Source of the DNA: Candidatus Helarchaeota archaeon
Lineage (GTDB): Archaea > Asgardarchaeota > Lokiarchaeia > Helarchaeales > HEL-GB-A
Reading direction: 5' to 3'
NCBI GenBank assembly: GCA_013375455.1
Contig: JABXJT010000009.1
Location: 1-64,000, forward strand
DNA: 64,000 bases
Shown here: piece after piece, positions 827 through 62,008 of the stretch
How the letters are laid out: each line of letters opens with the position of its first letter
Numbering within the stretch: position 1 is the stretch's first letter
Notes under the pieces: model-generated
The model's database searches: none
Seen by the model: the letters and a program-made list of their open reading frames with translations, nothing else
What the model was told of the DNA's origin: nothing
Made by a program: the position numbers and the translations under genes

Positions 827-1228
827 TTAATTTTGGATGCTTAATATTTGCTCTGTTTCGCGGGCAAGCTTTTGTAAATGTAGGAGTGTGATGCCGAGAT
901 TTTCTCGATCAATTACAGAGATTATGACAGCTTCTTTACCAGCTGTTACAAGCACGATAGTTCCTACTTCAGAATCGATGATGATACGTTGTGGATTTGC
1001 TTTCAATAACTCTTCAGTCGTGCGTTCCCCTAACATCGTCATTTCAGCTGCCATTCCGGCTATTAATTCCTCATTAAAATAAGTTCCCCCATTACCCTGA
1101 AATGAATTATCAATGACCGATGCAATAACGAATCCATCTCGCGATACAATCGCAGTTGTATATACATTCGTTACCATTCCAAAATTTATCAAAAGCTCAT
1201 CTAATTTTTCTCCTTTAGTGCGCAGCAT
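827..1228 (-). CDS. Roadblock/LC7 domain protein
   Basis: A 133-residue protein made up of a single Roadblock/LC7 fold. The pattern is an N-terminal helix (LDELLINFG), a strand with TTAIVSRDGFVIAS, a helix with EELIAGMAAEMTMLGERT, a strand IIIDSEVGTIVLVTAG and the closing NLGITLLHLQKLA helix. This family forms dimers that scaffold or regulate small Ras-like GTPases; in bacteria MglB acts on MglA. The ATG at 1228 is preceded by GGAG about 8 nt upstream, which supports the start. It lies 113 bp downstream of a P-type ATPase gene on the same strand. Its partner GTPase cannot be told from the sequence, although an MglA-like GTPase occurs at 62009..62620. Confidence 0.88.
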   Translation of the reverse strand: MLRTKGEKLDELLINFGMVTNVYTTAIVSRDGFVIASVIDNSFQGNGGTYFNEELIAGMAAEMTMLGERTTEELLKANPQRIIIDSEVGTIVLVTAGKEAVIISVIDRENLGITLLHLQKLARETEQILSIQN

Positions 1229-1341: not shown

Positions 1342-4176
1342 TTATTCACGATACCGTTCCATAATGTTTTCAATACGTTTTACATAATATTCGAGTTTTT
1401 TCCGCTTTGGATTCTTTATATACCGCCATAATGCTTTAAATCCCTCCATTACAAAAAGGAGAGATGAGCTAAGGAGAATGATTATTCCCCATTCAAGTAA
1501 TCCTATTGGATAAGTATGAAAGATACCTCCAACTCCAGGTATATATATAATAGCGACAAGAAACCCTATCGAAAGAGCTACTGAAATAACCAACATACGA
1601 TTAATAGACGGACCGTGTAAAATTGATTTCTCTTTTTCACGACATAGGAATACGTTAAAGAATTGAGAGATGGATAAAGTTAGGAATGCAAAGGTTTGTG
1701 CAAAATAGGTTTTTTGTGTATCACCAATTATTCCCATCGGACTTGCTAAATTTAAACCTATTACAAAAGCCGCTAAGGTAACTATGGTTATGGTTACACC
1801 TACAACGGTAATATTAATTAAATCATGCTTTGTAAGAATGGACTCCTCCGGATCACGTGGAGGTTTTTGCATAACTCCTTTAGTGGGGGGATCAAACACT
1901 AAGGCCGTTCCAGGAAGACCATCTGTGACTAAATTTACAACCAGTATATGTATTGCAACAAGGGGTACGACATTTTTTCCACCGATAGATCCAATCGCAA
2001 ACATTATGGCAATAAATACCACCAAAATCTCTCCTACATTACTCGAAAGCGTGTAGAAAATGAATTTTTTAATATTCTCATAGATTACGCGCCCTTCCTC
2101 CACTGCATTAACAATACTGGCGAAATTATCATCAGCGAGCGTGACATCGCTAGCTTCCTTAGCCACATCAGTCCCAGTTATTCCCATAGCGACTCCCACA
2201 TCTGCTTTTCTTAATGCGGGTGCATCATTGACTCCATCGCCCGTCATTGCAACTACGTTAATTCGACTCTTATATGCATCGAGAATTTTTGTTTTTTGTT
2301 CTGGACTCACTCGCGCATAAACATCCACGTATCCAGCCATTTTTTGTAATTTTTCTGACTCTATTTCATTTAGATCACTTCCAGTAAGTGCCCCAGAGTA
2401 TTGGCGCATTAAGCCTAACTCTTTTGCTACAGCAACTGCTGTTAATTTATGGTCGCCTGTAATCATCGCTATTTTTATCCCTGCTTGCCTGCATTCCTCT
2501 AGGGCATCGCTTACTTCTTTCCTGGGCGGATCTATCATAGCTTGGAGACCCGTCAATATCAAATTTGATTCAATTTTTTCCATCGTGTATTCTGAAATTT
2601 CGGGCAGTAGCTTCTTGTATGCCATGGCAAGGACCCGAAGGGCATCAGATGTCAATTCCTCATTCATTGCGTGATATCGTACTTTGTCATCTTCCGTAAT
2701 GGGACGAATTTCTTGCCCGATTTGTATGTGGGATGAGATCTCAAGAATGCCTTCGAGCGCACCTTTCACATATGCGAATCTTTCATTATTCGGAGCAGAA
2801 TGAATGGTGGACATTCGTTTCCTTTTTGAATCAAATGGGATCTCTCCGACCCGAGGATTTTCATTTTCAAGTTCGGTTTTCCAGAGAGCAGCCTTGCCGG
2901 CCGAAACTACTAATGCGCCTTCCGTGGGATCACCGATCATTTCCCAATGTTTTACACCTTTTTCTTTAATATTTTCACTTAATGAGGCGTCATTACACAA
3001 AGTACCAATTTTTAGTGTCATGGTAAGAGGTGCGTTATGCGCTGGATCTAATTCCACGTTTTGAATGAAAAACCTTCCAATCGGATCGTAACCCTGTCCA
3101 GTTACGTCAATCACATCATCATTGGTAAAAATTTTCCTAACACTCATCTCATTCAAGGTTAATGTGCCTGTTTTATCGGAACATATCACGGTTGTGCACC
3201 CAAGCGTTTCCACGGCAGGAAGCTTCCTTATAATTGCATATTTTGCGGCCATTCGTGTTACTCCCAATGTGAGTGCAATGGTTACGATAATTGGTAAGCC
3301 TTCAGGGACGGCCGCTACAGCTAATGAAACCGCCTGTAAGAAACTACCTTGTATTCCAGCAACACCCTCCCGAATAAATCCAGCAATGAAGACGACTACA
3401 CAAACAAGGATGACAAGTATTCCAATCCATTTACCGAGCTGATTTATCCTTTTTGTTAATGGAGTTTCTTCTTCTTCTATTGTTTGGATCATGTCTGCGA
3501 TTTTACCTATTTCCGTGTCCATTCCTATAGTAGTAACTACTCCCTCCCCTCGACCGTATGTGACGACCGTGCCCGTGAATGCCATATTTTTCTGATCATT
3601 CACTGGGATATCTTCTTTCTTTAGAATCGAGTCTATTTTCGATACTGGTACTGATTCTCCTGTCAAAGGTGCCTCATCAACTTTTAAATTGATCGAGCTC
3701 ATCAACCGTGCATCCGCAGGAATTTTATCCCCCGTTTCAAGAATGATAATATCTCCAGGAACTAGCTCGCGGGCAGGGACCTCATGATCCTTATTATTTC
3801 TTCGCACTGTCGCCGTCGGCGCGGATAATTCCATTAACGCCTCCAATGATTTTTCCGATTTGGCCTCTAAATAAGTTCCAATACCGGCATTAATGAAAAG
3901 AATTGCACCTATAATAATTGCGTCAGTGAGCCCTCCCTCCTCAGAACCTGTGAGCCCCAAAACAATGGAAATGACCATGGCAACTACTAACAGAATCACC
4001 AAAAAATCTCGGAATTGCCCAATGAGAATGCTAAAAAGAGAGCGTTTTTTTCCGGTTAAAATTTCATTATATCCATACTCCTCACGACGTTTCAAAACTT
4101 CTTCTTCACTTAAACCTTCTTTTGTTGTTTTTAATGAGGTTATTACTTCACCAATTTCTTTGTCATAATAACTCAT
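1342..4176 (-). CDS. Cation-transporting P-type ATPase, P2A (Ca2+) type
   Basis: A 944-residue, full-length P2-type ATPase. It has an N-terminal cation ATPase domain, the A-domain TGES motif (172-175), the M4 PEGLP motif (291-295), the phosphorylation motif DKTGT (334-338), the nucleotide-binding KGA, and the hinge TGDGVNDAPAL. The Ca2+ ligands known from SERCA all have counterparts: Glu in PEGLP, Asn and Glu in the M5 stretch SSNVGEI, and Asn, Thr and Asp in the M6 stretch NLVTDGLP. Ca2+ export across the cytoplasmic membrane is therefore likely. It is encoded directly downstream of a second P2-type ATPase (73 bp gap), so the two may be co-transcribed. Confidence 0.93.
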   Translation of the reverse strand: MSYYDKEIGEVITSLKTTKEGLSEEEVLKRREEYGYNEILTGKKRSLFSILIGQFRDFLVILLVVAMVISIVLGLTGSEEGGLTDAIIIGAILFINAGIGTYLEAKSEKSLEALMELSAPTATVRRNNKDHEVPARELVPGDIIILETGDKIPADARLMSSINLKVDEAPLTGESVPVSKIDSILKKEDIPVNDQKNMAFTGTVVTYGRGEGVVTTIGMDTEIGKIADMIQTIEEEETPLTKRINQLGKWIGILVILVCVVVFIAGFIREGVAGIQGSFLQAVSLAVAAVPEGLPIIVTIALTLGVTRMAAKYAIIRKLPAVETLGCTTVICSDKTGTLTLNEMSVRKIFTNDDVIDVTGQGYDPIGRFFIQNVELDPAHNAPLTMTLKIGTLCNDASLSENIKEKGVKHWEMIGDPTEGALVVSAGKAALWKTELENENPRVGEIPFDSKRKRMSTIHSAPNNERFAYVKGALEGILEISSHIQIGQEIRPITEDDKVRYHAMNEELTSDALRVLAMAYKKLLPEISEYTMEKIESNLILTGLQAMIDPPRKEVSDALEECRQAGIKIAMITGDHKLTAVAVAKELGLMRQYSGALTGSDLNEIESEKLQKMAGYVDVYARVSPEQKTKILDAYKSRINVVAMTGDGVNDAPALRKADVGVAMGITGTDVAKEASDVTLADDNFASIVNAVEEGRVIYENIKKFIFYTLSSNVGEILVVFIAIMFAIGSIGGKNVVPLVAIHILVVNLVTDGLPGTALVFDPPTKGVMQKPPRDPEESILTKHDLINITVVGVTITIVTLAAFVIGLNLASPMGIIGDTQKTYFAQTFAFLTLSISQFFNVFLCREKEKSILHGPSINRMLVISVALSIGFLVAIIYIPGVGGIFHTYPIGLLEWGIIILLSSSLLFVMEGFKALWRYIKNPKRKKLEYYVKRIENIMERYRE

Positions 4177-4249: not shown

Positions 4250-7051
4250 TCATAGATTTTTGGGAGAATGGCGTCGATCCCACCATTTCCAGAGATACTT
4301 ATATCCCTCGGTGACCCAGATAATACTTGAACTTACTACGATAATTAAGACCCAGTCAAGCCAACCTAGAGGATAAGTATGAAACACTGGCCACAAAGCG
4401 GGGATATAAACAACAGTGAATTGAAGAATTATTGCAACCACCAATGCTAAATACATGTAGTTGTTCCGTTTTTTCATACCGAACATTGAATTCTTCAGGG
4501 AGCGACTGGCAAAAATATTCCAATTCTCGAAGAACGTTACGGTCATAAAGGCAAGTGTTGTAGCATACCTATAATTTAGATTCTCAGGCATCGCACTGGC
4601 TTTTCCATTTATTATCCCATAATAGAATAGAGCTAGGGTTCCAATACAAATGAGAGCCCCGAGGAGGATAATATTTATGGTAAATCGTCGAGTGAAAACA
4701 GGTTCATCAACACTTCTCGGGGGAAAATTCATCAGTTTTGGATCCTCTGGCTCTTTTGTTAAGCTGAGCGCGGGTAGCGAATCCGTAATAAGATTAACCC
4801 ATAAGATTTGAAGCGGTAATAAAGGCAGAATTGTAGTAATAGAGGAAAATACTTGAGTTCCAATGATAATCCAAACAAAAATAACCAGAATTTCACCTAT
4901 ATTACAAGATAGGAGGTAGAATATTGTTTTCAAGATATTTTCATAAATATTCCGTCCTTTCTTTACAGCAGAAACTATGGTCGCAAAATTATCGTCTGTT
5001 AAAGTCATACTGGCTGCTTCTTTGGCAACATCAGTACCCGCAATTCCCATTGCAACTCCAATATTTGCGCTTTTTAGGGCAGGGGCATCGTTGACCCCAT
5101 CTCCTGTCACTGCCACGATGTAATTTTTGCCTTCGAGCATTTGTACAACATCTAGTTTATGTTTAGGTGATATTCGAGCGAAAATTTTGGTTTTCTCAAT
5201 TACTTCCTTGGATTTTGTGTCGTATTCAATGCCTTTGACGGTATTTTGTTCTTCACCAGAAGATATGAGGCCGATTTCTTTTGCGATGGCATTTGCGGTT
5301 GCAGGGTGATCTCCCGTGATCATTTTAATTTCAATTCCCGCTTTTTTACACGTTTCAATCGCCCCAGGAACTGCATCACGGGGAGGGTCCATCATTCCTA
5401 CAAAACCAATAAAGGTAAGATCAGCATCCACGCCTTCATAATCTTCTCGATGACCATCAGTTAGGGTTTGATAAGCCATTGCCAAAATTCTTAATTGTTG
5501 AGATGAGTACTCTTCGTTTAATTTGAGAATTTTTTCGCGCTGGGCTCGTGTAATTGGTCCAATATTTCCATTTGTATAAATAGAATTACATCTATCTAAG
5601 ATTATATCCAACGCACCTTTTATATACGCGTGTATTTCATTTTCTGGTGTCTTATGCACGGTTGTCATTCGTTTCAACTCTGATGTAAAAGGAATTTCTC
5701 CAATCTGGGGATACTTTTCTTTTAAATCCTCGATGTTCATTCCTGCTTTCATCGCAAGAGTATGGAGGCTCCCCTCCGTTGGATCTCCTATAATAATCCA
5801 TTTATTATCTTTCTTCTCGACCTTAGATGTCCCGCACAATGCCCCAACTCGTAATAATAATTCAAAATGTTTATCTTTTAATGGGTTGATTTCCTTTTCA
5901 TCTTCTTGATAAAACCTACCAATTGGGGCATATCCAACTCCAGTCACGTTAATTACTTTATCATTAGCATAAATCTGTCGTATTGTCATCTCATTTTTCG
6001 TCAATGTTCCCGTTTTATCCGAACAAATTACATTAACTGATCCTAATGTTTCAACCGCTTTTAATCTTTTAATTACTGCCCGCTCTTGGGCCATTTCGCG
6101 CATTCCTAAAGCTAAACTGGTTGTAATTACAATTGGTAAGCCTGATGGCATCGCAGCAACAGCCAAAGCAACGGCTGTTAGCATTAAACTAACTGTTACC
6201 GCCCCCGGATCGACGAAAAAAGTTCCAGTAATTACCCCTTTTAATATTCCAATAATAAAAACTAGGACACAAATGACGACGATTAAGACTCCGAGCTGAA
6301 GGCCAACTTTCGCCATTTTTCTTTGTAAAGGAGTTTCGGCTTCTTCAATTTCAGATAATAATTGGGCAATTAAACCTATTTGGGTTTGCATTCCCGTACC
6401 TGTAACGACCGCTTTTCCCCGCCCATACGTCGCAATTGTCCCACTAAATACCATATTTTTCCGATCTGCTAAAGTCGCCGTTTTTTCGATGGCTGCAGGC
6501 TTTTTCTTTACTGGCTTGCTCTCCCCCGTCAAAGTAGACTCATCAACTTGCAAATTCATTACTTCCAAGAGCCGCGCATCTGCCGGTATCTTATCGCCCA
6601 TTTCTATAAAGATCAAATCACCCGGAACCAAACGTCGGCTATTAATGATGCTCTCCCCCTCTGGGCGGAAAACGCGCACGTCATGCCCCGCAGTAATCTC
6701 TTTTAACGCCATCATGGATTTTTCTGAACGATATTCCGTGACTAGCCCAACTATTGAATTAATCATTACGAAGCTCGCAATTGCAACGACGTCCGTGAAG
6801 TCATATTCCTGTTGGATTACAATGACAGCAAGTTCAATAATAATGGCGACTATTAATATGAGAATGAGGATGTCTTTGAATTGTACTAAGAACAATTTGA
6901 TAATTGAAGTTCCTTTTGCTTGGGGTAGCTCATTTAAACCGTGAATCTCCAGCCTTTTGGTAGATTCTTCTTCAGAAATTCCTTTATCCGACGATTCCAA
7001 GCTTTTTATTACGTCTTGGGTTTCCATCTTATAGTAATGGGTCTCTTCCAT
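4250..7051 (-). CDS. P2-type cation ATPase with altered M4 motif (PSGLP)
   Basis: A 933-residue P2-type ATPase with intact catalytic motifs: TGES (175-178), DKTGT (345-349), MITGDHPATA and TGDGVNDAPAL. M5 (SCNIGEI) and M6 (NLITDSLP) keep the Asn/Glu and Asn/Thr/Asp ligands. The M4 motif, however, reads PSGLP (302-306) where Ca2+ pumps have PEGLP, so the glutamate that forms Ca2+ site II in SERCA is a serine here. It may carry one ion instead of two, or a different cation such as Na+, Mn2+ or H+. It is the first gene of the ATPase pair. Its upstream region is shared, head to head, with cdc6 and the candidate origin. Confidence 0.92.
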   Translation of the reverse strand: MEETHYYKMETQDVIKSLESSDKGISEEESTKRLEIHGLNELPQAKGTSIIKLFLVQFKDILILILIVAIIIELAVIVIQQEYDFTDVVAIASFVMINSIVGLVTEYRSEKSMMALKEITAGHDVRVFRPEGESIINSRRLVPGDLIFIEMGDKIPADARLLEVMNLQVDESTLTGESKPVKKKPAAIEKTATLADRKNMVFSGTIATYGRGKAVVTGTGMQTQIGLIAQLLSEIEEAETPLQRKMAKVGLQLGVLIVVICVLVFIIGILKGVITGTFFVDPGAVTVSLMLTAVALAVAAMPSGLPIVITTSLALGMREMAQERAVIKRLKAVETLGSVNVICSDKTGTLTKNEMTIRQIYANDKVINVTGVGYAPIGRFYQEDEKEINPLKDKHFELLLRVGALCGTSKVEKKDNKWIIIGDPTEGSLHTLAMKAGMNIEDLKEKYPQIGEIPFTSELKRMTTVHKTPENEIHAYIKGALDIILDRCNSIYTNGNIGPITRAQREKILKLNEEYSSQQLRILAMAYQTLTDGHREDYEGVDADLTFIGFVGMMDPPRDAVPGAIETCKKAGIEIKMITGDHPATANAIAKEIGLISSGEEQNTVKGIEYDTKSKEVIEKTKIFARISPKHKLDVVQMLEGKNYIVAVTGDGVNDAPALKSANIGVAMGIAGTDVAKEAASMTLTDDNFATIVSAVKKGRNIYENILKTIFYLLSCNIGEILVIFVWIIIGTQVFSSITTILPLLPLQILWVNLITDSLPALSLTKEPEDPKLMNFPPRSVDEPVFTRRFTINIILLGALICIGTLALFYYGIINGKASAMPENLNYRYATTLAFMTVTFFENWNIFASRSLKNSMFGMKKRNNYMYLALVVAIILQFTVVYIPALWPVFHTYPLGWLDWVLIIVVSSSIIWVTEGYKYLWKWWDRRHSPKNL

Positions 7052-26663: not shown

Positions 26664-27663
26664 TTAAGGAACTAAAGTGACATTGTAGTAAGGGATGGAA
26701 ACTTGGACATTAAGGGCTGTTGATTTGTCGGCACGTGGTTCTTCTTCATCAACTAAGTAGGGGGCAAAATTAACGAAGGATTCTTTAAAATCAGAGGCAC
26801 CCGAATAGTCTTTCAGGAGTTGGTCATTTTTAACGAGGTTGACTTCGCCACTGGCAAGGAAATTGAGTTCTGATAAGGGGTTCGTAGAAGTGATATTGAG
26901 ATTGAATTCTAAGATGATGGATGAATCAGCTGCCAACGCATTACCTCGGGTAGAGAAAGTGAAGGTGCCAGAATCGAAAGATCCATGAACCGTGCTGATG
27001 TGTTCGACAGTTGTGTTCTCCGGATTCTCGTAAAACCGCAAGGATATGTTGTAGCTGTCCAACGCGACGGTGTTTTTTAACTCGAGGTAGAATTTTACGG
27101 TGGTTTCATTCCCTCTTATGATGGTAGAGGGGGTCGTGTTCATTTTCACCAACTCCACCCACGTCGACATCTCGAGCGACGTACCATTTTCCATTATAGT
27201 TTCCCAAGAAAATGCGGAATCTAATTCATTAAAGTCATAATATATTTTATCTGATAATACGAGAGGGGGTATGGGGAGACTGGGTTCAATAATTTGATAG
27301 GAGTCATTAAAATAATCTGTAATTGTACAACTAAGAGTAGTATATTTGGGATTAAGGTGATACCAAGCGCGAATTCGATCGAACGTGATGCTTTGAGTAT
27401 CCTGGTCCAGCGTGGCGTGCACGAAATCAATTTCCGTATAGTAATAAATAGGTTCGGGCGGTCCCAAGAATACAAAGGTAATGGCTAATACCATAGCGAC
27501 AGCAACCCCGATAATCAGGCCGTATTTTTTCGTGTCCGATATTCGGCTTGATCCAACCCGCTTCGAATCTGCATGACTTTTTTGAAAAGATTTTTTAAGT
27601 GCTTTCTTTTTCTTTTCAAGTTCCTCTTTTTCTTCTTTTTTCAGCCGTCTTCTGCTTGGCATG
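26664..27663 (-). CDS. Single-pass membrane protein with extracellular beta-rich domain
   Basis: About 332 residues from the ATG at 27663, which has GGGAG 8 nt upstream; an ATG at 27675 is the alternative. A highly charged N-terminus (RRRLKKEEKEELEKKKKALKK) precedes one transmembrane helix (about 48-70). The remaining 260 residues are strand-rich with many Asn-x-Ser/Thr sites, consistent with a surface-exposed Ig-like or adhesin-like domain. No family is recognised. It follows the eL22 gene by about 25 bp and may be co-transcribed. Confidence 0.7.
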
Positions 27664-27687
27664 GAGAATTCTCCCATACCTACAAAC

Positions 27688-28008
27688 TTAGAGTTCTCGG
27701 AAATCTAAACCCTTTCGTTTTTGAATTTTGAATTCTTCATCTGCGGTGGAAATGACGCGGAATTTCTCTTTAATCTCAAATTTATGGAGGAATTTTTTAA
27801 GGAAAGTTTTGAGTTGGCGTTTATTGATGCGATTTTCAGTGAAACCAATGAGCACGTTCTTGCCAGATCGATCCACTACGGATCCGGCAGGGAGGCGTTC
27901 TTCAACAAAGGTGCCAAGCTCATCAACGAGGCGATCTTCTACCCAAGTCAAGTGGTCGGCGTCGATAACATACGAAACCGAAACATCTCTTTCTGAATCT
28001 TCGGCCAT
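27688..28008 (-). CDS. rpl22e: Ribosomal protein eL22
   Basis: A 106-residue protein that aligns with eukaryotic large-subunit protein eL22. A strand-helix start (VSYVIDADHLTWVEDRLVDELGTFVEERL) leads to the basic helix INKRQLKTFLKKFLHKFEI, equivalent to the eL22 pattern FSKRYLKYLTKKYLKKN, followed by KFRVISTADEEFKIQK, equivalent to WLRVVANSKESYELR. eL22 is known from eukaryotes and has been reported from Asgard archaea; it is absent from most other archaea, so this gene is the strongest lineage marker in the window. It binds 23S rRNA on the 50S surface. Confidence 0.83.
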   Translation of the reverse strand: MAEDSERDVSVSYVIDADHLTWVEDRLVDELGTFVEERLPAGSVVDRSGKNVLIGFTENRINKRQLKTFLKKFLHKFEIKEKFRVISTADEEFKIQKRKGLDFREL

Positions 28009-28047
28009 TGTGGATCATCTCAGTAATTATTAGTTCCAATAATTAAT

Positions 28048-28845
28048 TTACAGATCTGGACTTCCAAATTCATCATAATCGGCCTCTTCAAGCCCTTCAT
28101 CGGGCTTGGATTCCATATCAAAAGGTAAGAGTTCCATTATAAAGAATTTGATTCCTCGCCGCTCTTGTTCTTGGAGCACTCTCACGTTCTCATAGTTGGG
28201 ATTGAATAGCATGAGGCGATAGTTCGCGAGATCCATATCATTCTCAGCGATGACGGCGCGGACATCATCAATGAGGAACTGGATAAATATATGAAATCGT
28301 TCAGCTACGCTACTAATGTATTTTTTAATGATAGGACCTTGTTCTTCAGCCACTCTAATCCATCGCTTCATTAGACGTTGATTGATGACTCGGGGGAGAA
28401 AACAAACCGTTAAAAGCAACCCCATATAAACAACATAAGTAAGCCAGTAGAGGTCGGGAGGAAAAAGGTCGCCCACAAAGAAGATAATAACGAACGAGAG
28501 GGCAAATATCCCGATCATTATAGGGAGGTTATATTTCATGCTTTGTCTCCGGATTGACTGTGAAAAACCATGATCTTTAGCAGCATCTTGAGTTCTGACA
28601 AGGATCTGAGTGATGCCATCATCAATACGGTTATCAACCCAGCTGTCACGAATTTCAGTTCGCGCTGTAACTAGTTCATTCAGGATCCTAGTTTGATATT
28701 GGTGGATGGTTTTCTCTTGATAAATTAAGTCGAAAGGGCGTTCGCATAAATAATCGAGGAAAACAATCACAGAAAATTCGTGCTGCAAAAGATGCTGGGG
28801 CTCCGGCTTTAAATCAGAGGGACGTTCTTCATACACTTTTCTCAT
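28048..28845 (-). CDS. Two-TM membrane protein of unknown function
   Basis: A 265-residue protein. A helical N-terminal half (residues 1-95) contains charged helices. Two adjacent hydrophobic segments (about 99-120 and 128-150) form a hairpin in the membrane, followed by a long helical and alpha/beta cytoplasmic domain ending in an acidic tail (DEGLEEADYDEF). Its start overlaps the stop of the HTH-CBS gene by 4 bp, so the two are translationally coupled. No family is recognised. Confidence 0.72.
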   Translation of the reverse strand: MRKVYEERPSDLKPEPQHLLQHEFSVIVFLDYLCERPFDLIYQEKTIHQYQTRILNELVTARTEIRDSWVDNRIDDGITQILVRTQDAAKDHGFSQSIRRQSMKYNLPIMIGIFALSFVIIFFVGDLFPPDLYWLTYVVYMGLLLTVCFLPRVINQRLMKRWIRVAEEQGPIIKKYISSVAERFHIFIQFLIDDVRAVIAENDMDLANYRLMLFNPNYENVRVLQEQERRGIKFFIMELLPFDMESKPDEGLEEADYDEFGSPDL

Positions 28846-29414
28846 CTCAAATAATTTCTTATTAAATCAGCCTTGGTTATTATTCCGGCAATTTTTCCTT
28901 CATTTATAAGAAGGACCGCAGGATCTCCATGTTGGATGAGAAGATCCTCAACTGCTTTCAATGATGCTGTTACCGGTAACATGGGTAATGCATCATCTTT
29001 AGTCATGATTTCTTTTATGGGCTGGGATAAAATTCCAGTCCCATTTTTGATAAGGTTACTTGTAATGGTCGTCTCCTTTATGGCTCCAATGACATGTTCA
29101 TCTACATCACACACGGGTACTTGACTAAACCCGTGGTTAAATATGATTTTTGAAGCCTTTGAAATGGAATCCGTTTCTTCAACGGTTATGACCTCTGTAA
29201 CAGCCACATTAATCGCTTTTAACTCTTTTTGAACGGTGTCATTTAAGACCTTTAGGATCCTCCGAATGGTACTTAACCGAGGATCCACCGATCCTGCCTC
29301 AATCCGGGCAATTAAGGATTGACTAACTGAGGCTCTTTCGGCAAGTTCTTGTTGAGTTAAACCACAATTCTTCCTAAATTTCTTAAGATCCTCTGGCGTT
29401 GGAAGATTCATCAT
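28842..29414 (-). CDS. HTH (XRE) and tandem CBS domain regulator
   Basis: A 190-residue protein. Residues 8-60 are an XRE-type helix-turn-helix (FRKNCGLTQQELAERASVSQSLIARIEAG), and residues 70-190 hold two CBS motifs (SISKASKIIFNHGFSQVPVCD and LKAVEDLLIQHGDPAVLLINEGKIAGIITKADLI). CBS pairs bind adenine nucleotides or SAM, so it probably senses energy or cofactor state. Adjacent ATG codons at 29414 and 29411 leave the start uncertain by one residue. It is translationally coupled to the membrane protein at 28048..28845, which may be its target or partner. Confidence 0.9.
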   Translation of the reverse strand: MMNLPTPEDLKKFRKNCGLTQQELAERASVSQSLIARIEAGSVDPRLSTIRRILKVLNDTVQKELKAINVAVTEVITVEETDSISKASKIIFNHGFSQVPVCDVDEHVIGAIKETTITSNLIKNGTGILSQPIKEIMTKDDALPMLPVTASLKAVEDLLIQHGDPAVLLINEGKIAGIITKADLIRNYLR

Positions 29415-29606
29415 TTTTGTTCCTTAAACTACAATTCTTCTAAATAAATAAACTTCTGGAATTATATAATGGAATAAAATTATATTTACTTTCTTTTTTT
29501 CATTCAATCCTAAAATTAAAACTTACCTATTAAAAATTCATTAGGCATAGATATATTTGTAGATTAACGCTTAATTTTACATTAAATTGATGGAAGGCTG
29601 AAATTC

Positions 29607-30251
29607 ATGGATTGTGCGAATTGCAAGAAATTAGCTTGTTTGGTGGGAGCTCGGAAAAAGCCACCTGGTTGCCCAATGGTTGAACATCCTGAATTATATG
29701 AAAAAGCAAAAGAGCTTTATGAAGATCCTGAAAATATAAAGATCGCGCGTTGTGCTGGTATTGTAGAAGCAACTGGTTATATTGAGTGGCCACGCGTGAA
29801 AGACACCGTTGAATTTGCTAAACTAATGGAATATCGAAAATTAGGGCTGGTTTTTTGTATTGGACTACGAGAAGAAGCTCGAAAAGTCCAAGAAATTCTA
29901 GAACGTTATGGGTTTGAAGTGATTTCCAGTTTGTGCAAAACGGGGAGCTTCACCAAATCAGAGGTGGGTAACGTTCCTGAGGAATTCCAAATGACGTCCA
30001 AAACGGGGTATATCATAGGTTTTGTATCCTGTAATCCGATTAGTCAAGCGTTACTAATGAATGAAGCTACGACCGATTTTAATATTATCGTTGGTCTATG
30101 TGTTGGGCATGATTCTCTATTTATTAAGTATTCAAAGGCACCCGTGACAGTTTTAATCGTAAAAGATAGACGATTTCCCCATAATCCCGCTGCTGCCCTA
30201 TACACGTATTATTCTGATAAATTTTTTGACCGAGACCTGCAACAAAAATGA
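29607..30251 (+). CDS. DUF1847 cysteine-rich metal-binding protein
   Basis: A 214-residue protein with DUF1847 features: an N-terminal CxxC...C cluster (DCANCKKLACLVGARKKPPGCP), the conserved VSCNPISQALLMN block and the C-terminal VGLCVGHDSLFIKYS and VKDRRFPHNPAAALY. The cysteines suggest bound metal or an Fe-S cluster. The function of the family is not established. It is transcribed away from the HTH-CBS gene. Confidence 0.85.
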   Translation: MDCANCKKLACLVGARKKPPGCPMVEHPELYEKAKELYEDPENIKIARCAGIVEATGYIEWPRVKDTVEFAKLMEYRKLGLVFCIGLREEARKVQEILERYGFEVISSLCKTGSFTKSEVGNVPEEFQMTSKTGYIIGFVSCNPISQALLMNEATTDFNIIVGLCVGHDSLFIKYSKAPVTVLIVKDRRFPHNPAAALYTYYSDKFFDRDLQQK

Positions 30252-30490
30252 ATAGAACCACCCCAAATCTAATTTAGTGTCCTTCAATTATTTTACTACG
30301 GAATTATTTTTTGCCTTAAAAATGTTAATTTTTTTCCTTTTTTTCACTTAGAAATTGCTATAAACCTATCTAAAAATATGGGAAATGGAGAGGGCAAACT
30401 TTAAATGAGACGGTTTTTACAAAAAATTGATTGGAAGAAACAATATCTTTAATGTCGAAATAGATGAAAAATGAGAAAGAGTTGAATTGA

Positions 30491-30766
30491 GTGCAATTCT
30501 GTGATGAATGTGGTGCCTTATTAGTTCCAAGAAAAGAAAAAGGAACCAAGAAGCTGGTACTGGTTTGTAGGAAATGCGGTAATGAGGTTATACCCGATTC
30601 AGCGGAGATAAGTGACTATGTAATATCCTCTGATTTAAATCACGTGACACGGGAAAAAATTGAGGTCGTGAAAGAAAAACCTCGAAAAACACGAAGAGTG
30701 ACCAACGAAGACCGTGAAGCATTCGAGGATTTCTTTGAAGATGATAGCGGCGTCGAATCCTACTAA
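30491..30766 (+). CDS. TFS/RpoM-like N-terminal zinc ribbon protein
   Basis: A 91-residue protein from a GTG start. The N-terminus (FCDECGALLVPRKE, then LVLVCRKCGNE) is the zinc ribbon of archaeal TFS/RpoM and eukaryotic RPB9/RPA12. The C-terminal ribbon with the RSADEP-type catalytic loop that stimulates RNA cleavage is missing. The C-terminal 45 residues are charged and end in an acidic patch (EDFFEDDSG). It may bind RNA polymerase without cleavage activity. Confidence 0.78.
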   Translation: MQFCDECGALLVPRKEKGTKKLVLVCRKCGNEVIPDSAEISDYVISSDLNHVTREKIEVVKEKPRKTRRVTNEDREAFEDFFEDDSGVESY

Positions 30767-30972
30767 CAATCTAGGCATAGACCATCAAATTGAAAGCCAA
30801 CTTCTTGTAAAATCAGATTAAATCATCAACCATCAGTTGAAAGCGTCTTTTGTTTAAAATTTTTAGCACTCTTCTGTAAATTGAATATATTTTTTAAAGA
30901 CTTTAAATATAAAAGGGATGTAACTTATTTTGATTACGGACAGTTCAAAACGCTGGTTTGACGGGAAGTTAC

Positions 30973-32052
30973 ATGAATTTGCGGTTAATCCTAGAACAGA
31001 GTCACGGAGAATTTTTAACCGTAGAAAAGACAGCCATGTTTCAAACTCTTCTCGCAGAAATGGAAATCGTCGTTTTTCCATTAATTGACAGTCCAATTAC
31101 GTTTGAAAAAATAAAAGATGACCACATCCTATTCATTGGATGTCCATCAATTCCCTTTGATGATTCAGAAATCAGTGCAATTTTACAATTCGTGGGAGAG
31201 GGAAATTTTTTAATATTAATTAGTGGAAGCGGAGGCGATTACGCCAATAATTCAAATTTAAATGAAATAGCCCGATATTATGAATTTGAATTCAATCCTG
31301 ATTATGTGGAAGATGAAAAACATCATCATAACTTCTCAAGGATTCCAATAATTCATAAATTTAAGAAGAATCCCATAGTTAAACGTTTAAAAAAGCTTGT
31401 TTATGCAGGATGCTCAATTTCCATTTTAGACGTATCGACCATTCCAATCCTTTTAACTGATTCGGATTCAATTCCGGTAAATTCTCCCGTAATGGCCATC
31501 TCTGAAAAACATTCAGTGATCGGTATTGGGGGCTATGCTTTTTTTACGGATGATCCCATTTCTGGAATCAGAGCAATGGATAATATACGGTTTGTCTATA
31601 ATTTATTTGAATACATAAAATCACGATTTACGAAAAAAGTGGAAGATATTGAGAAAGTTCTCATCACTAAACCCAAACAACTCACCTTTAAAGTTGCTAA
31701 AAAGCAATTCAATAAACTTTTAACACTTAATACCGAAAAGGTGAATGAACTCGGAGAAAAAATTGACAAATATTGGGAAGAATGCTCAGCATTAATAAAA
31801 GTGCAGAAGTTCGACCAGGCTGAACAAAAGATTTATTCAATCTATCAAGAATTACTTCAATCAATAGATTTAGTCGCGTCTCAAATAGGAAATACGTTCA
31901 GTGAATACAATGCATTATTTCCAAAATTCAAAGGTGCCGTTTTAAACGATTTTAATAAATGGTACGAGGCTGAGGCAGAAACGAGATCAAAACTTGACAT
32001 GATTCGCAATAATTTAAAAACGATTTTAAAACAAGAACATACTCAAGCATAA
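30973..32052 (+). CDS. GIFT-domain (IFT52-like) protein with coiled-coil tail, copy 1
   Basis: About 359 residues. The frame reaches a TTG at 30958, but the ATG at 30973 matches the start of the downstream paralogue (MNLRLILEQSHGE versus MSLRIVFDESHGE). Residues 1-210 look like the GIFT fold of GldG and IFT52: a strand ending in SHGE, DHILFIGCP, a cap helix, GNFLILISGSGGD, LNEIARYYEFEFNPDYV and IGIGGYAFFTDD. Residues 215-359 are helical and coiled-coil-like. A TATA-like TTTAAATATAAA lies at 30902. No membrane segment is seen. Confidence 0.72.
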   Translation: MNLRLILEQSHGEFLTVEKTAMFQTLLAEMEIVVFPLIDSPITFEKIKDDHILFIGCPSIPFDDSEISAILQFVGEGNFLILISGSGGDYANNSNLNEIARYYEFEFNPDYVEDEKHHHNFSRIPIIHKFKKNPIVKRLKKLVYAGCSISILDVSTIPILLTDSDSIPVNSPVMAISEKHSVIGIGGYAFFTDDPISGIRAMDNIRFVYNLFEYIKSRFTKKVEDIEKVLITKPKQLTFKVAKKQFNKLLTLNTEKVNELGEKIDKYWEECSALIKVQKFDQAEQKIYSIYQELLQSIDLVASQIGNTFSEYNALFPKFKGAVLNDFNKWYEAEAETRSKLDMIRNNLKTILKQEHTQA

Positions 32053-32070
32053 GACAGGTTCAGGATTTCG

Positions 32071-33165
32071 ATGAGTTTAAGGATCGTATTCGATGAGAGT
32101 CATGGAGAACAAATATCAATTTTTAACTGTAAAGGGCTTTCATTTGTATTACAAAAACTAAAGATAGTGTCTTTCCGGTTAATTTCAGGCCCCATTACCA
32201 TTGATAAAATCGTTAATGAGGATGTTTTATTTCTTGGAGCCCCTATGAAAAAGTTTTTAGAATTCGAAATTAAAACCATTGAATATTTTGTTTCAAAGGG
32301 AAAATTTTTGGTCATTGCCTGTCCTATGCCCATGCCATTTAATTTTTCATTAAATGACCTATTAAGAAAATTCGGAATGCAATTCAATAACGATGTTGTT
32401 CAAGATAAAAAACATAATCTCGATGGAGCAATGTATTTTCCCATAATCAGCAAATTTACAAAAGATCCAATCACCCACGACGTTCACTCTCTAATCTATT
32501 CTGGTTGTTCAATCAAGAAATTATATGATGAAGTTAAAATCATAGCATTCACTGATGAGCATGCGGAACCTCCATCTACTCCAGTCATAGCGACTGCGAA
32601 CAACAGTAGAGTTATCGTTATTGGCGGGCACTATTTATTTCAGGATGATGACCGCTATGGCATTAAAGCAAAAAATAACATACGATTGATAGCTAACATC
32701 TTTCGGACCATTCATCAACACCGAGAAGCGCCAGCAGAACGAGAACCTCCAAAACAAGAAGAAAAAAGAAAAGCAATTGACCCAAAAAAGGCGAAAAAAC
32801 ATTTTGAGCATCAAGTACATAATGCAATCACTGAATTGAAGAGAAAAACAGACGAAATTGATAAGCTTTTTGATGAAATCATTAAGTTAATGGATTCTCA
32901 AAAGTTTACTTTGGCTGAGCAAACCCTCCAAGCTCGCTATAAACAATTCAAAGGAGCTATTGAGACCATTTATCAGGCTCTAATGGAAGAGTTGGAAGAT
33001 CTAGATTCCAGAATTCTAAAAGATGTAGATTTCCCCGCAATGGTCAATGAATCTACGGACCAAATATTAGTGATGGAAAGTGAAGCGCTCTCTAAATTGG
33101 ATATGATCAGATTCAATTTATTCAATCGGATTAGAACAGAAAAAGTTCGTTATGAGCGTCGATGA
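32071..33165 (+). CDS. GIFT-domain (IFT52-like) protein with coiled-coil tail, copy 2
   Basis: A 364-residue paralogue of the preceding gene, 18 bp downstream. The N-terminal domain has the same order: DESHGE, NEDVLFLGAP, KFLVIACPMP, LNDLLRKFGMQFNNDVVQDK and VIVIGGHYLFQDDD. The stretch around FGMQFNNDVV is strikingly like the IFT52 pattern YGIMVNNDAV. After a charged linker (REPPKQEEKRK), the C-terminal 130 residues are helical and predicted to coil. The glycines and loop residues differ from copy 1, so the two may form a heterodimer (inference). A Roadblock gene follows. Confidence 0.75.
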   Translation: MSLRIVFDESHGEQISIFNCKGLSFVLQKLKIVSFRLISGPITIDKIVNEDVLFLGAPMKKFLEFEIKTIEYFVSKGKFLVIACPMPMPFNFSLNDLLRKFGMQFNNDVVQDKKHNLDGAMYFPIISKFTKDPITHDVHSLIYSGCSIKKLYDEVKIIAFTDEHAEPPSTPVIATANNSRVIVIGGHYLFQDDDRYGIKAKNNIRLIANIFRTIHQHREAPAEREPPKQEEKRKAIDPKKAKKHFEHQVHNAITELKRKTDEIDKLFDEIIKLMDSQKFTLAEQTLQARYKQFKGAIETIYQALMEELEDLDSRILKDVDFPAMVNESTDQILVMESEALSKLDMIRFNLFNRIRTEKVRYERR

Positions 33166-33321
33166 AAAAGCAATAGTTTAAAAAGTTGCTATGACTAATA
33201 CAAAAACCAAGAACCTTTATTTGGGAATGACCTGCTAATAAATTCGGATAGGGTCAAAGGCGTCCTGTATCATCGCACGTGCATCATAAAACTCTGTCAT
33301 TCTCTCGTGTTGGGTTGAAAA

Positions 33322-33684
33322 ATGGCATATGAAGCAATTCTAAGAAAGCTTAAAGAACAGACAGGCATTCATGGGAGTTCTTTACTCACAGTCGAAGGGC
33401 TACCCATTGCTGCAGATTTTCCAGATACCGGCACAGAAACTGCATTAATTTCTGCATTATCTGGAGCAACTTTAGCGACTGGAGCCCATATGATTGCACA
33501 ATTTCAATATGGATATCCTGATCATTTAACGTTGAAAGGAAAAGATGGGACAATTTTTCTCTATCAAGTAAATGATCAAATGGTATTGACCGTTCTAGCT
33601 CCGAATGATGTAAGTTTGGGGATTTTCACTCTTGGAATTAAGAATGCCATCAAAGATATAAATGTAGCTGTTAATAAACCTTGA
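33322..33684 (+). CDS. Roadblock/LC7 domain protein
   Basis: A 120-residue single-domain Roadblock/LC7 protein. The pattern is a helix (YEAILRKLKEQTG), SSLLTVEGLPIAADFPDTG, a helix with ETALISALSGATLATG, strands with HLTLKGKDGTIFLYQV and MVLTVLAPNDVSLGI, and a final helix. It lies 157 bp downstream of the GIFT pair on the same strand. Roadblock proteins bind Ras-like GTPases or act as dimeric scaffolds, including in dynein complexes in eukaryotes. It differs clearly from the Roadblock protein at 827..1228. Confidence 0.88.
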   Translation: MAYEAILRKLKEQTGIHGSSLLTVEGLPIAADFPDTGTETALISALSGATLATGAHMIAQFQYGYPDHLTLKGKDGTIFLYQVNDQMVLTVLAPNDVSLGIFTLGIKNAIKDINVAVNKP

Positions 33685-33750
33685 AATACTCCCAATAGCT
33701 CCTAATTTCAGTCTGTTATTCTATAACAATAACATACTATTCTGATTTAG

Positions 33751-34653
33751 GTGAATCTAATTCAATCTCAAGAAAAGGGCAATGCCCTTCAAAATTCATC
33801 ACTAGTTTATTTCTCAATTTTTTTCATCCTAATTGGAATTATTTATATTTTCAACTTTATTCGACCAATATTTAACCTTTACACGATTTCTTTCGAAATA
33901 AACTGGGCAGAATTCCAAATCCTTGAAATTTTTGACATTCTAAGTATTTGTTTTGGTGCTCTCCTCATTATTTTAGGATTTTCATTGTTTATTTATCAAA
34001 AGTTCAATAAATTTCTTTTAATTTTCGGGGGCATTCTTTTTTTTATCTTCAACCTTTTAGATCCTTCTCATTTACTAATGGTTGCTAACTTGTTCTCCTC
34101 AATTCTGGGTGCGCCTCCTAGTTGGATGCAAGTCATCCCCCAAAATTTATTTGTTATTTACATTGCATCCTGGAGTCTTTTAAGCATATCAAACGTCATT
34201 CTTCAATTCGTTGGGTTTTATGTTGCAATTCGGATAATCATCAATTCTAATCCTCAGAAATCAATAATTCAATACCTATATTTCTATTGTTGGGTAATCG
34301 GATTATCAGGAATCATTCTCTGCCTTCAATCCGTCCTTGTTCTAAGCCTAACCATGAGTTGGTCTTCAATCACGGTTGCCCCCTATTTAATTAACGTAAT
34401 GATATGGAGTTTTATGATGATTGCTGGAATAGCGGGTTTAGTATTTGTTCGAGATTGGATGAAAAATCAACTTTCTCATTTAAAAGCAGGCCAACTTTCG
34501 CTTGTTTCCTACGGTGTAATGTACGTGTTAATTAGTTTTAGCGATTTTGCTATGAAATCAGTTCCTTCTTTGGTACTTAGTGTCTTCTTTGCAGTATTAT
34601 TAATCATATATGCCTTTAAAATTCCATCATTTCTTAGGCATCAGAATAATTAG
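33751..34653 (+). CDS. Polytopic membrane protein, about seven TM segments
   Basis: A 300-residue protein with a GTG start and seven or so hydrophobic segments (near 20-43, 55-82, 87-115, 128-160, 172-200, 208-235, 253-290). No motif for transport or catalysis is seen and no family is recognised. It is downstream of the Roadblock gene and convergent with the GlcF-like gene, 7 bp between ends. Confidence 0.72.
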   Translation: MNLIQSQEKGNALQNSSLVYFSIFFILIGIIYIFNFIRPIFNLYTISFEINWAEFQILEIFDILSICFGALLIILGFSLFIYQKFNKFLLIFGGILFFIFNLLDPSHLLMVANLFSSILGAPPSWMQVIPQNLFVIYIASWSLLSISNVILQFVGFYVAIRIIINSNPQKSIIQYLYFYCWVIGLSGIILCLQSVLVLSLTMSWSSITVAPYLINVMIWSFMMIAGIAGLVFVRDWMKNQLSHLKAGQLSLVSYGVMYVLISFSDFAMKSVPSLVLSVFFAVLLIIYAFKIPSFLRHQNN

Positions 34654-34660
34654 ATGAGTT

Positions 34661-35893
34661 CTATCCCTTCCAAGAATCATAAACATCCGATTTGAGACCC
34701 AGAGCTTCTGCAACCAAGTTCGGGAGATCGTAAAATTCCATATCTATGTTATTTTCGTGAGCGGCATCGCGTAGATTCTTCAAACACATTGGGCATGCAG
34801 TGATGAGATTATTCGCACCAGTGGCTTGCGCCTCCTTAATTCTTCGAGATCGAATTTCTTGATTTAACTCGGGATAATTGATTAGACACGTGCCCCCAGA
34901 TCCTGCACCGCAACACCAAGACTCCTTATGTGATCGGTCCATTTCGACTAATTCCGCACCCACCCTGGTGATGATTTTTCGGGGGTTCTTGTATTCGTTA
35001 GTATGTCGTCCTAAATGGCAAGGGTCGTGATAGGTGACTTTCTCTTGAATTTTTTTCTTCAAATTCAATTTTTTCAAGAGCGGTAGGAGCGTTTTAGATA
35101 CATGCTCAACTCTAAATGGCACGGACACTCCGATTTCTTTATAATCATTCTTGAATGTATTAAAACACCCTGCACATGAAAAGATTACTTTTTTAGCTCC
35201 AGTTTCTTGAATTCGTTTGATGAGTTCTTGGGCATTTTTGCGAGCATCTTCAACATTTCCAGCCCATATGAGCTGGTGTCCGCAACACAATTCATCTGTT
35301 CCGAGATATGCCATCTCTCGTCCTGATTCTCGGAGGACTTTGATGACGGCCTCAGGCGTGTTTGGATTTTGGTAAGCCGCAGCACACCCTGCAAAATAAA
35401 GGACATCCGCCTTCTTAGGCAAATTCAAATCCTCCGCCCAATCTACACGGAGGTCTTTCTCTAATCCAAATGGGTTATTTATCTCTGGGTTCATTATTTT
35501 AGCACACGTTTCTTGGAGTTTTTTGGGCGCCAACCCCATCTTCCAACAATCTTCACGCATTGCTTTGATAATTTTCATATTCTCTAACGGTTTAAGACCA
35601 GGAAGCAAAGTAGGTGTACAAATTTGTTCGCACGCTTTACATCCTAGACAACGAAAAACAACATCTTCTGCTAATTCTGTGTTATACTCTATAACTTCTT
35701 CCAGAAGATATTTGGCAATTGTATTTCTTCCACGGCTTGTATAATGATCAAAGCGTAACACATCATAAACCGGACATACACCCAGCCATGCATGCTTGGT
35801 GGCAATGCCCTTACTGATGGTCTCCCGACACATCGAACAGCACCCACAGAACCAGACTTCATTCTTGAACTCTTCTAATTTCATCAGTCCCAT
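34661..35893 (-). CDS. CCG-domain Fe-S protein (GlcF/HdrD-like)
   Basis: A 410-residue protein. The N-terminal 100 residues are Cys-rich and probably hold [4Fe-4S] clusters (CCSMC...GVCP and CLGCKACEQIC). Two CCG domains follow, around FAGCAAAYQ...LCCGHQ and DPCHLGRHTNEY...SWCCGAGSGG. This is the iron-sulfur subunit layout of glycolate oxidase (GlcF), lactate oxidase and HdrD. It lies 15 bp downstream of a GlcD-like gene and probably carries its electrons to the membrane or a ferredoxin. Confidence 0.91.
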   Translation of the reverse strand: MGLMKLEEFKNEVWFCGCCSMCRETISKGIATKHAWLGVCPVYDVLRFDHYTSRGRNTIAKYLLEEVIEYNTELAEDVVFRCLGCKACEQICTPTLLPGLKPLENMKIIKAMREDCWKMGLAPKKLQETCAKIMNPEINNPFGLEKDLRVDWAEDLNLPKKADVLYFAGCAAAYQNPNTPEAVIKVLRESGREMAYLGTDELCCGHQLIWAGNVEDARKNAQELIKRIQETGAKKVIFSCAGCFNTFKNDYKEIGVSVPFRVEHVSKTLLPLLKKLNLKKKIQEKVTYHDPCHLGRHTNEYKNPRKIITRVGAELVEMDRSHKESWCCGAGSGGTCLINYPELNQEIRSRRIKEAQATGANNLITACPMCLKNLRDAAHENNIDMEFYDLPNLVAEALGLKSDVYDSWKG

Positions 35894-35908
35894 TTTCTGA
35901 ACAACTCC

Positions 35909-37453
35909 TTAAGGAAATTTTTTAGAAAGGATTTCTTCTTCTGCATCACCAAGTCCCAATAAGAAGGCCCCGGGGTTCATTATATTATTGGGATCAAACA
36001 GCTTCTTTAGCGCTTTGAGAAGATTCCAATAGGCGGGTTTGAATTTCTTAACTAAGTGGGGCATAAACGCATCTTTCGCAGTCCAGTAGGGACATGTCCC
36101 CAATTCTACCTTGGTTTTCAAAATTTCATGCCATAGTTTATAGGCTTTCGTCCGCAAGTCCCTAGTCGTCGCGTCCATGTTGAACATGCTCATGTGGAGC
36201 ACATAGGGACCCCATGCCCCGCCCGGGTACTGAATGCTCCAGCATTTATTGCCCAACCCTGTTGTCGAGAGAAGATCTAAGATTTTAGGGTTTTTGAAGA
36301 ACTTATAATGCCATTTATTCATCTCTGGGCACTTGAGCAGGGGCAATATACTGCAAGTCTTGTGCAACATACCTCCAAACCACTTACACGTTGCCCCCCC
36401 AAGCATCTCGTTAGTGTCATGGCCACTAACACCGAATATAGTTGGATCTTCAGGAAATTTGATTGCCTTATATTTGTTGGCAATCTTATCTAGCATTATA
36501 TTTTTACGTTCGAGGATTACTTCGTCATATGCAGAAGTGTGTATGAGAGCTGGTCCCTTTTTTGTCTTGCCACGTTCTAAATTAAATGCATTTTCAACGA
36601 TCGCATATTGGAACCCTTGGGCAAGCCCCATATAGTCACTCATAATTTCATATGAACTTATCTCAGTCAAAGCTTGGCACTGATCTTGTTCATTAGGAAA
36701 GACATAGAGGAAATCAGAATGATATTCGGGCTCTGGAAATGTCTTGAGCGTGACTTCCGTGATGATGCCGAAGGCACCACAAGACCCCATAAAGAGCCCC
36801 GCCAAATCGGGACCATTACAATAGCGAAAGTACCAATCGGCACAAGGATTCGCCAGAGACCCAGTTTCGATAACTTCACCTGTGGGAAGAACGACTTGGA
36901 GATTCATTACATTTTCATTTTCCTGTCCGTATTTAGTACCTTGGATTCCTGTGGAATCAATAGAGATCCCACCCCCGATGGCAGCTGCATACATACCATG
37001 CGGACCCATAAATCCCGGCGACAAGCCGAACTCCTTTAGTTCATAGCAGAGTTTTCCCCAAGTGATCCCTGCTTGAAATCGACAAGCTCTGGATACCGGA
37101 TCATTTCGAATAAATGAATTCATATCAAGTAAATCAAGCATAATGCCGCCACTCGTGAGTGCAGCGGAACCCGAAGCATTGCCTGTACCTCCGCCCCGCG
37201 GGATAATCGGGATTACGTATTTATTTGCCAATTTCACAATTTCAACCACATGTTTAGTAGTTTTTGGCTTCACGATCACGTCGGGCGGTCCAAGGTCTAA
37301 ATACAAATCATCAGTCAATCCTGGACTGACCGTGGACCAAGCTTCGCTCAATGCATAGGTCCAACGGGCGTGGTCAGAATCATTAACGGCATTGCTTCCC
37401 ACGATGCCTTCAAGAGCGGAAACTAAATCAGATTGAGAGAGAGTCTTCGTCAT
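35909..37453 (-). CDS. FAD-linked oxidase subunit (GlcD/D-lactate dehydrogenase-like)
   Basis: A 514-residue protein with a PCMH-type FAD domain: IIPRGGGTGNASGSAALTSGG, then GPHGMYAAAIGGGISIDSTG and a C-terminal FAD-oxidase domain ending in LFDPNNIMNPG. This is the catalytic subunit of glycolate or D-lactate (2-hydroxyacid) dehydrogenases. It is the first gene of a two-gene unit with the GlcF-like Fe-S protein. The substrate, a 2-hydroxyacid such as lactate or glycolate, is inferred from family and pairing. It diverges from the MaoC genes. Confidence 0.92.
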   Translation of the reverse strand: MTKTLSQSDLVSALEGIVGSNAVNDSDHARWTYALSEAWSTVSPGLTDDLYLDLGPPDVIVKPKTTKHVVEIVKLANKYVIPIIPRGGGTGNASGSAALTSGGIMLDLLDMNSFIRNDPVSRACRFQAGITWGKLCYELKEFGLSPGFMGPHGMYAAAIGGGISIDSTGIQGTKYGQENENVMNLQVVLPTGEVIETGSLANPCADWYFRYCNGPDLAGLFMGSCGAFGIITEVTLKTFPEPEYHSDFLYVFPNEQDQCQALTEISSYEIMSDYMGLAQGFQYAIVENAFNLERGKTKKGPALIHTSAYDEVILERKNIMLDKIANKYKAIKFPEDPTIFGVSGHDTNEMLGGATCKWFGGMLHKTCSILPLLKCPEMNKWHYKFFKNPKILDLLSTTGLGNKCWSIQYPGGAWGPYVLHMSMFNMDATTRDLRTKAYKLWHEILKTKVELGTCPYWTAKDAFMPHLVKKFKPAYWNLLKALKKLFDPNNIMNPGAFLLGLGDAEEEILSKKFP

Positions 37454-61900: not shown

Positions 61901-62008
61901 GCTTCAATGCGCCTCCAAATTAAATTAAAATGTGGAGTTTATAAAATTTTATTTCAACTTCTTTCTGAAAATCGTTTGAAGTGGATTATTGTGTTAATTG
62001 ATTTCGGA

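What the first reader, a model, noticed from the sequence alone, without database searches (positions are those of the whole stretch)
30973..33684. Tandem IFT52-like GIFT proteins beside a Roadblock protein
Two adjacent paralogues have a GldG/IFT52-like GIFT domain (DESHGE start, a FGMQFNNDVV stretch that closely resembles IFT52) and a helical coiled-coil tail without membrane segments. A Roadblock/LC7 gene follows on the same strand. In eukaryotes IFT52 and Roadblock both belong to ciliary transport or dynein systems. A cytoplasmic GIFT heterodimer working with a Roadblock protein in an archaeon could be a new trafficking or scaffold module. The GIFT call rests on pattern recognition, and the Roadblock gene is 157 bp away, so it may not be in one operon.
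Basis: partly seen in the sequence, partly recalled or inferred. Interest (0 to 1): 0.82.

Follow-up and report, generated by a model that had tools for sequence, protein, structure and literature searches.

The report
Asgard archaeal IFT52-like scaffold protein pair
This archaeon carries two side-by-side soluble proteins whose front half has the same fold as IFT52, a core part of the transport machine that builds cilia in our cells, and genes with that domain occur in nearly all examined members of the archaeal group closest to eukaryotes.

The parts
30973..32052 (+). GIFT-A: IFT52-type GIFT domain (residues 1-222) plus helical tail, 359 aa
32071..33165 (+). GIFT-B: paralogue of GIFT-A, 364 aa
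   Evidence: 32% identity over full length; PF23355 24.5 bits (below cut-off 27.2); IFT52 top PDB hit E 2.7e-4; not folded on its own
33322..33684 (+). Roadblock/LC7 protein, 120 aa
   Evidence: PF03259 40.7 bits (cut-off 23); best match in G002 and G003 is the copy beside their GIFT gene
30902..30914 (+). TATA-like stretch TTTAAATATAAAA about 60 bp upstream of GIFT-A, read by eye as a possible archaeal promoter
   Evidence: sequence; not tested against chance
28842..29414 (-). HTH + CBS protein, divergent neighbour kept in 3 of 5 helarchaeal loci
28048..28845 (-). protein of family c11 (two hydrophobic stretches seen by eye in its L001 and L003 relatives), kept near the GIFT genes in 5 of 5 helarchaeal loci
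27688..28008 (-). ribosomal eL22-like protein, kept in 5 of 5 helarchaeal loci
   Evidence: PF01776 32.4 bits (cut-off 23.6)
26664..27677 (-). protein of family c16 (relatives have a hydrophobic stretch near their start, seen by eye), no Pfam match, kept in 4 of 5 helarchaeal loci

Best explanation
SHOWN: GIFT-A and GIFT-B are soluble-looking Asgard proteins with an IFT52-type GIFT domain and, in the GIFT-A model, a helical tail. They are tandem duplicates kept in helarchaea, belong to a GIFT family found across nearly all Asgard genomes examined, and lie in 3 of 5 loci beside one particular Roadblock protein. INFERRED: the GIFT domain has the fold of class I glutamine amidotransferases but works as a protein-binding platform, as in IFT52. 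The helical tails, which share a conserved KLDMIRxNL motif, pair A with B into a scaffold. The Roadblock protein, probably a dimer, docks on it and couples it to a Ras/Rag-type small GTPase, so that the scaffold assembles or is placed on membrane or cytoskeleton under GTPase control.
Against: No complex was modelled and no binding shown. Roadblock is absent from the GIFT locus in L001 and L053, and G001 and G083 show only weaker matches elsewhere (45.2 and 42.6 bits). GIFT-B is absent from L003, and the L002 GIFT-B has lost the tail motif. No GTPase gene was found next to the window pair. Many other Asgard GIFT genes have unrelated neighbours: DNA polymerase B and a PCC protein, or a nucleotidyl transferase. 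Two genomes place Roadblock-like c62 convergent to, not in line with, GIFT. GIFT-B is the weak member: a eukaryotic IFT52 profile scores it 37.9 bits, no better than the best GldG-like protein (38.6), while GIFT-A scores 50.0. One paper notes that small GTPase genes of an Asgard isolate are generally not in operons with roadblock genes (PMC10933270, passages). The fold is also that of ThuA and amidotransferase enzymes, so a catalytic or ligand-binding role is not excluded.
Confidence: 0.45

Rival explanations
1. The pair is a generic GldG/DUF4350/ThuA-type GIFT protein with no special tie to IFT52. It binds a small molecule or sugar or keeps a degenerate enzyme activity, and the IFT52 likeness only reflects a shared ancient fold.
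For: GIFT-B scores slightly higher against ABC_transp_aux than against IFT52_GIFT, and a eukaryotic IFT52 profile scores GIFT-B (37.9) no better than the best GldG-like protein (38.6). 17 of 20 Asgard members also match ABC_transp_aux, 15 DUF4350 and 6 ThuA. GIFT-B keeps an invariant Cys84 in 17 of 17 aligned rows.
Against: IFT52 stands clearly above OST48, ThuA-like and amidotransferase structures for two models. Profile-profile score Asgard-IFT52 220.6 against Asgard-GldG-like 147.6 and IFT52-GldG-like 82.0; the GldG-like side was only four proteins. No GldG structure is among the fold-search rows shown, so that comparison was not made by structure.
Confidence: 0.3
2. The GIFT pair is real but the Roadblock gene is an unrelated neighbour; the working partners are the c11/c16 proteins and the HTH-CBS protein of the divergent block.
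For: The c11 and eL22-like genes are kept in 5 of 5 loci, Roadblock only in 3 of 5. The 156-bp gap leaves room for its own promoter.
Against: The GIFT-A proteins of L002 and L003 are only 38% and 35% identical to the window's, yet the same Roadblock relative stays beside them while other genes moved. Chance expectation is small.
Confidence: 0.3
3. The proteins are soluble derivatives of OST48/WBP1 with a role in glycosylation.
For: OST48 is the second-best family in the fold comparison; 3 of 20 members match OST48_N; Asgard WBP1 has been reported, restricted to Heimdallarchaeia including Njordarchaeales (PMC10307638, section 10 read); seven GIFT genes lie beside a nucleotidyl transferase family.
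Against: No membrane segment seen in the window pair; no OST48_N match for the window pair; IFT52 beats OST48 in fold score.
Confidence: 0.07

Closest known systems
IFT52 (eukaryotic IFT-B core subunit)
   Same: N-terminal GIFT domain: same fold at 1.7-2.1 A, 20-24% identity in the fold alignments, a similar TN(L/I)N..FG...N stretch; soluble; further region behind the domain
   Different: No IFT52 central domain (threads through TPR proteins IFT88/IFT70) and no IFT46 partner found; tail is helical; duplicated as a tandem pair; host has no cilium so far as known (recalled)
GldG / ABC_transp_aux (bacterial gliding and ABC-type systems)
   Same: GIFT domain, weaker match for the family as a whole
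   Different: The GldG-like proteins found here (P0091, P0093) carry hydrophobic, membrane-type ends (seen by eye); the window pair looks soluble, with no ABC gene among the neighbours scanned
OST48/WBP1 of oligosaccharyltransferase
   Different: Lower fold score; OST48 is a membrane protein of the ER (recalled)
Roadblock/LC7 proteins (MglB, Ragulator, DYNLRB; names recalled)
   Same: The third gene is a true member by Pfam
   Different: Which GTPase or motor it serves here is unknown

Membership tests
IFT52 | N-terminal GIFT domain (PF23355) | tested here: met
IFT52 | IFT52 central domain (PF23352) | tested here: not met
   No match in either window protein. Also 0 of 227 Asgard genomes, but that search rang in no control genome and so does not by itself show absence. 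Eukaryotic hits such as P0068 carry PF23352
IFT52 | C-terminal domain pairing with IFT46 | tested here: inconclusive
   Neither window protein matches PF21178, which many eukaryotic hits carry and which I take to be this domain (no call names it). IFT46 (PF12317) over cut-off in 0 of 227 genomes, one sub-cut-off match in G071; no control genome rang
IFT52 | Works in ciliary IFT-B trains | not testable with these tools
   No experiment possible
GldG / ABC_transp_aux | Match over Pfam cut-off and membrane anchoring with ABC-type genes | tested here: not met
   31.9 and 27.5 bits, both below cut-off 34.7; no membrane segment outside the GIFT fold; no ABC transporter gene among the neighbours scanned, 26664-37453
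OST48/WBP1 | OST48_N match with membrane anchor | tested here: not met
   No OST48_N match for the window pair; no membrane segment outside the GIFT fold
Roadblock/LC7 | Robl_LC7 domain (PF03259) | tested here: met
   40.7 bits over cut-off 23, residues 4-93
Roadblock/LC7 | Dimer that binds a small GTPase or dynein | not tested
   No complex modelled

The most novel reading that the evidence does not exclude
IFT52, the cornerstone of the ciliary IFT-B complex, descends from an Asgard family of cytoplasmic GIFT scaffolds that already worked with Roadblock/small-GTPase switches, and perhaps TPR proteins, before cilia existed. The helarchaeal tandem pair would be a living version of that pre-ciliary scaffold.
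Probability: 0.3. Interest if true: 0.95.

Novelty: new variant of a known kind. Interest (0 to 1): 0.8.

Why it matters
Where the cilium's transport machine came from is an open question. A soluble IFT52-type GIFT family present in nearly all Asgard genomes examined, in places beside genes for Roadblock, Ras/Rag GTPases, ubiquitin-system and ARPC4-like proteins, would give a prokaryotic relative of the IFT-B core that can be expressed and tested. Searches of the held papers for Asgard with IFT52 and with GldG returned none, and 'GIFT domain' with archaea returned one paper, on oligosaccharyltransferase. The passages I saw in papers on Asgard eukaryote-like genes do not mention IFT52.

Tried and rejected
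1) A-B-Roadblock co-fold. The three genes happen to lie in one frame, so a read-through chain was tried as a pseudo-complex. Identities show that MAFFT put the GIFT-A rows on the GIFT-B part, and it put the Roadblock rows on GIFT-B, so no such job was folded. No interface evidence exists, and GIFT-B was not folded on its own.

2) Phylogeny. The first tree (88 rows: 71 Asgard, 12 IFT52, 5 bacterial) put IFT52 among Asgard rows, next to L046 and a very long DUF4350 row. The second (72 rows; P0092, L046, L047 and 13 near-duplicate rows dropped) put IFT52 outside all Asgard rows with support 91/64 and a branch of 1.92. P0089 was dropped from both as too short. So IFT52's place relative to the Asgard set is unresolved; bacterial sampling is only 4-5 rows that were picked by similarity.

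3) In one search one IFT52 row (P0089) slipped into the Asgard count (72 of 71), so I do not use its Asgard median or maximum; the scores given for single rows and for profile pairs are not touched by it.

4) In the fold searches no Roadblock, dynein or GldG match was among the rows shown; this says nothing about membership.

5) One search matches include long frames (967-1357 aa among those listed) of other GIFT-bearing proteins, so 219 of 227 counts the domain, not the compact family; with the profile of the helarchaeal pair at E<=1e-20 it is 166 of 227. 'About 8' non-Asgard genomes over cut-off is 217 minus 209 across, in which different numbers of candidates were scored.

6) Literature. 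'Asgard'+'IFT52' 0 papers; 'GIFT domain'+archaea 1, on OST; Asgard+GldG 0. 'Asgard archaea'+'intraflagellar transport' listed 17; I looked at passages of three of them (PMC11149776, PMC13261697, PMC7203096), which say nothing of Asgard IFT52, and did not open the other 14. 'IFT52'+archaea listed 8, none opened. Other listings. Preprint servers and most subscription journals are not held, so absence there is not shown.

Full report
What is there. The window encodes GIFT-A (30973-32052, 359 aa), GIFT-B (32071-33165, 364 aa) and a Roadblock/LC7 protein (33322-33684, 120 aa), all on the + strand. Most of the named close database relatives are labelled Candidatus Helarchaeota, and three helarchaeal genomes gave loci (L001 Hel_GB_A, L002 Hel_GB_B, L003 LW55_61). 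No whole genome is held for the window itself. A and B are paralogues over their full length: 32% identity, E 4e-56. Each has many relatives: 20 proteins listed for B (one is its own sequence) and 23 for A, the weakest at E 9.2e-124 and 1.5e-54.

How wide is it? A profile of both paralogues matches 166 of 227 Asgard-phylum genomes at E<=1e-20, often with several paralogues. Pfam's own IFT52_GIFT model matches 219 of 227 at E<=1e-3 and 209 over cut-off, with none of 14 control genomes. Among 392 relatives, of which 165 lie outside the phylum, 14 outsiders match and about 8 are over cut-off; the five outsiders whose frames were listed have 340 to 1012 aa. All 20 Asgard members scanned match IFT52_GIFT at E<=0.01, the best at 100.2 bits. 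A profile of those 20 (no IFT52 in it) finds solved IFT52 at 2.7e-31, 6.7e-31 and 1.6e-24, colinear over both halves; the next matches shown, from 1.4e-5, fall mainly on the tail and are mostly coiled-coil proteins (60 of 333 shown). Profile-profile scores rank Asgard-IFT52 (220.6) above Asgard-GldG-like (147.6) and IFT52-GldG-like (82.0). But a eukaryotic IFT52 profile scores the window proteins 50.0 (A) and 37.9 (B) against 24.2 to 38.6 for five bacterial rows, so B alone does not stand out. Of 48 GIFT frames in the neighbourhood set, 42 show no membrane-like stretch; two (L049, L054) have one at the C-terminus, and the other four, GIFT-A among them, have one in the GIFT part.

What it is not. 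IFT52's central domain was found in 0 of 227 Asgard genomes and IFT46 over cut-off in 0 of 227, though no control genome rang either; eukaryotic proteins do carry the IFT52 domains, and neither window protein does. So these are IFT52-type GIFT proteins, not IFT52. Two trees disagree on whether IFT52 falls among or beside the Asgard proteins; I draw no ancestry from them.

The Roadblock gene. It is a true Robl_LC7 member. It lies downstream on the same strand in window (156 bp), L002 (143 bp) and L003 (about 650 bp, with a TPR gene between), and is missing from the loci in L001 and L053. Searching with the window protein, the best match in G002 and in G003 is exactly the copy beside their GIFT gene (78.9 against 35.3 bits; 64.2 against 43.2), while G001 and G083 have only weaker matches elsewhere (45.2, 42.6). 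With 17-23 Roadblock matches per genome, a same-strand copy within 700 bp is expected with chance about 0.0016. The genomes are related, so this is conservation of an old neighbourhood, not independent events. Other kept neighbours are an eL22-like protein (5 of 5), family c11 (5 of 5), family c16 (4 of 5) and HTH-CBS (3 of 5).

Wider neighbourhoods. Other Asgard GIFT genes lie beside Ras (L050) and Rag-type (L044) GTPases, an ARPC4-like family in L057, L058 and L071 (Pfam checked on L071), and, in L045 and L052, beside a ubiquitin cluster (E1, E2, RING-like and ubiquitin checked on L045) next to c62, which is weakly Roadblock-like (22.1 bits against 23 in G003; no Pfam match for the L045 copy) and convergent with the GIFT gene. 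But seven GIFT genes sit by a nucleotidyl transferase family, and L057-type genes by a PCC protein and DNA polymerase B, so neighbours vary.

Mechanism. In IFT-B, IFT52 is the organising scaffold; its GIFT domain sits at the microtubule-facing side and its central region threads through TPR proteins (PMC10191852, passages seen). The simplest reading here is a non-enzymatic GIFT platform with a pairing helical tail, working with a Roadblock/GTPase switch. The fold, family, range and gene order are shown; pairing, docking and GTPase control are inferred. Rivals are a degenerate enzyme or ligand binder, an incidental Roadblock neighbour, and an OST48-like role.

Novelty. Searches of the held papers for Asgard with IFT52 and with GldG returned none; 'GIFT domain' with archaea returned one paper on OST. 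Asgard WBP1/OST48, a cousin fold, has been reported (PMC10307638, section 10 read). Preprint servers and most subscription journals are not held, and most papers in the wider listings were not opened.

Noticed in passing
L045:3634-8185 and L052:6465-10679: A short GIFT paralogue (278-301 aa) lies next to an E1-like gene beside a ubiquitin cluster (E1, E2, RING-like, ubiquitin; Pfam checked on L045) and a weakly Roadblock-like gene in two helarchaeal genomes.
   Followed up: partly
L057:8329-8916, L058:5672-6442, L071:8462-9037: An ARPC4-like gene family (28.7 bits over cut-off 22.2, tested on L071) lies 47-148 bp from a GIFT gene in three Asgard genomes.
   Followed up: partly
L060, L061, L074, L075, L079, L080, L081: GIFT genes of about 450-510 aa lie next to a nucleotidyl transferase family (Pfam checked on L061), five of them also near gene family c14.
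   Followed up: no
L049:7021-8085 and L054:7006-8070: GIFT proteins with one hydrophobic C-terminal stretch, as if tail-anchored.
   Followed up: no
L003:7238-7774: A TPR protein sits between GIFT-A and Roadblock where GIFT-B would be; IFT52 binds TPR proteins in IFT-B.
   Followed up: no
window 32071-33165, residue Cys84 of GIFT-B: Invariant Cys in 17 of 17 aligned GIFT-B rows, at the end of a strand where GIFT-A has Ser; could be a leftover of an amidotransferase-like site.
   Followed up: no
window 827-1228 (-) and 61907-62620 (+): A second Roadblock protein and a Ras/Arf-type GTPase elsewhere in the window.
   Followed up: no
window 1342-4176 and 4250-7051 (-): Two adjacent P-type cation ATPases.
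   Followed up: no
L046:953-3853: A 966-aa GIFT-bearing frame in Hel_GB_A (G001), function unknown.
   Followed up: no
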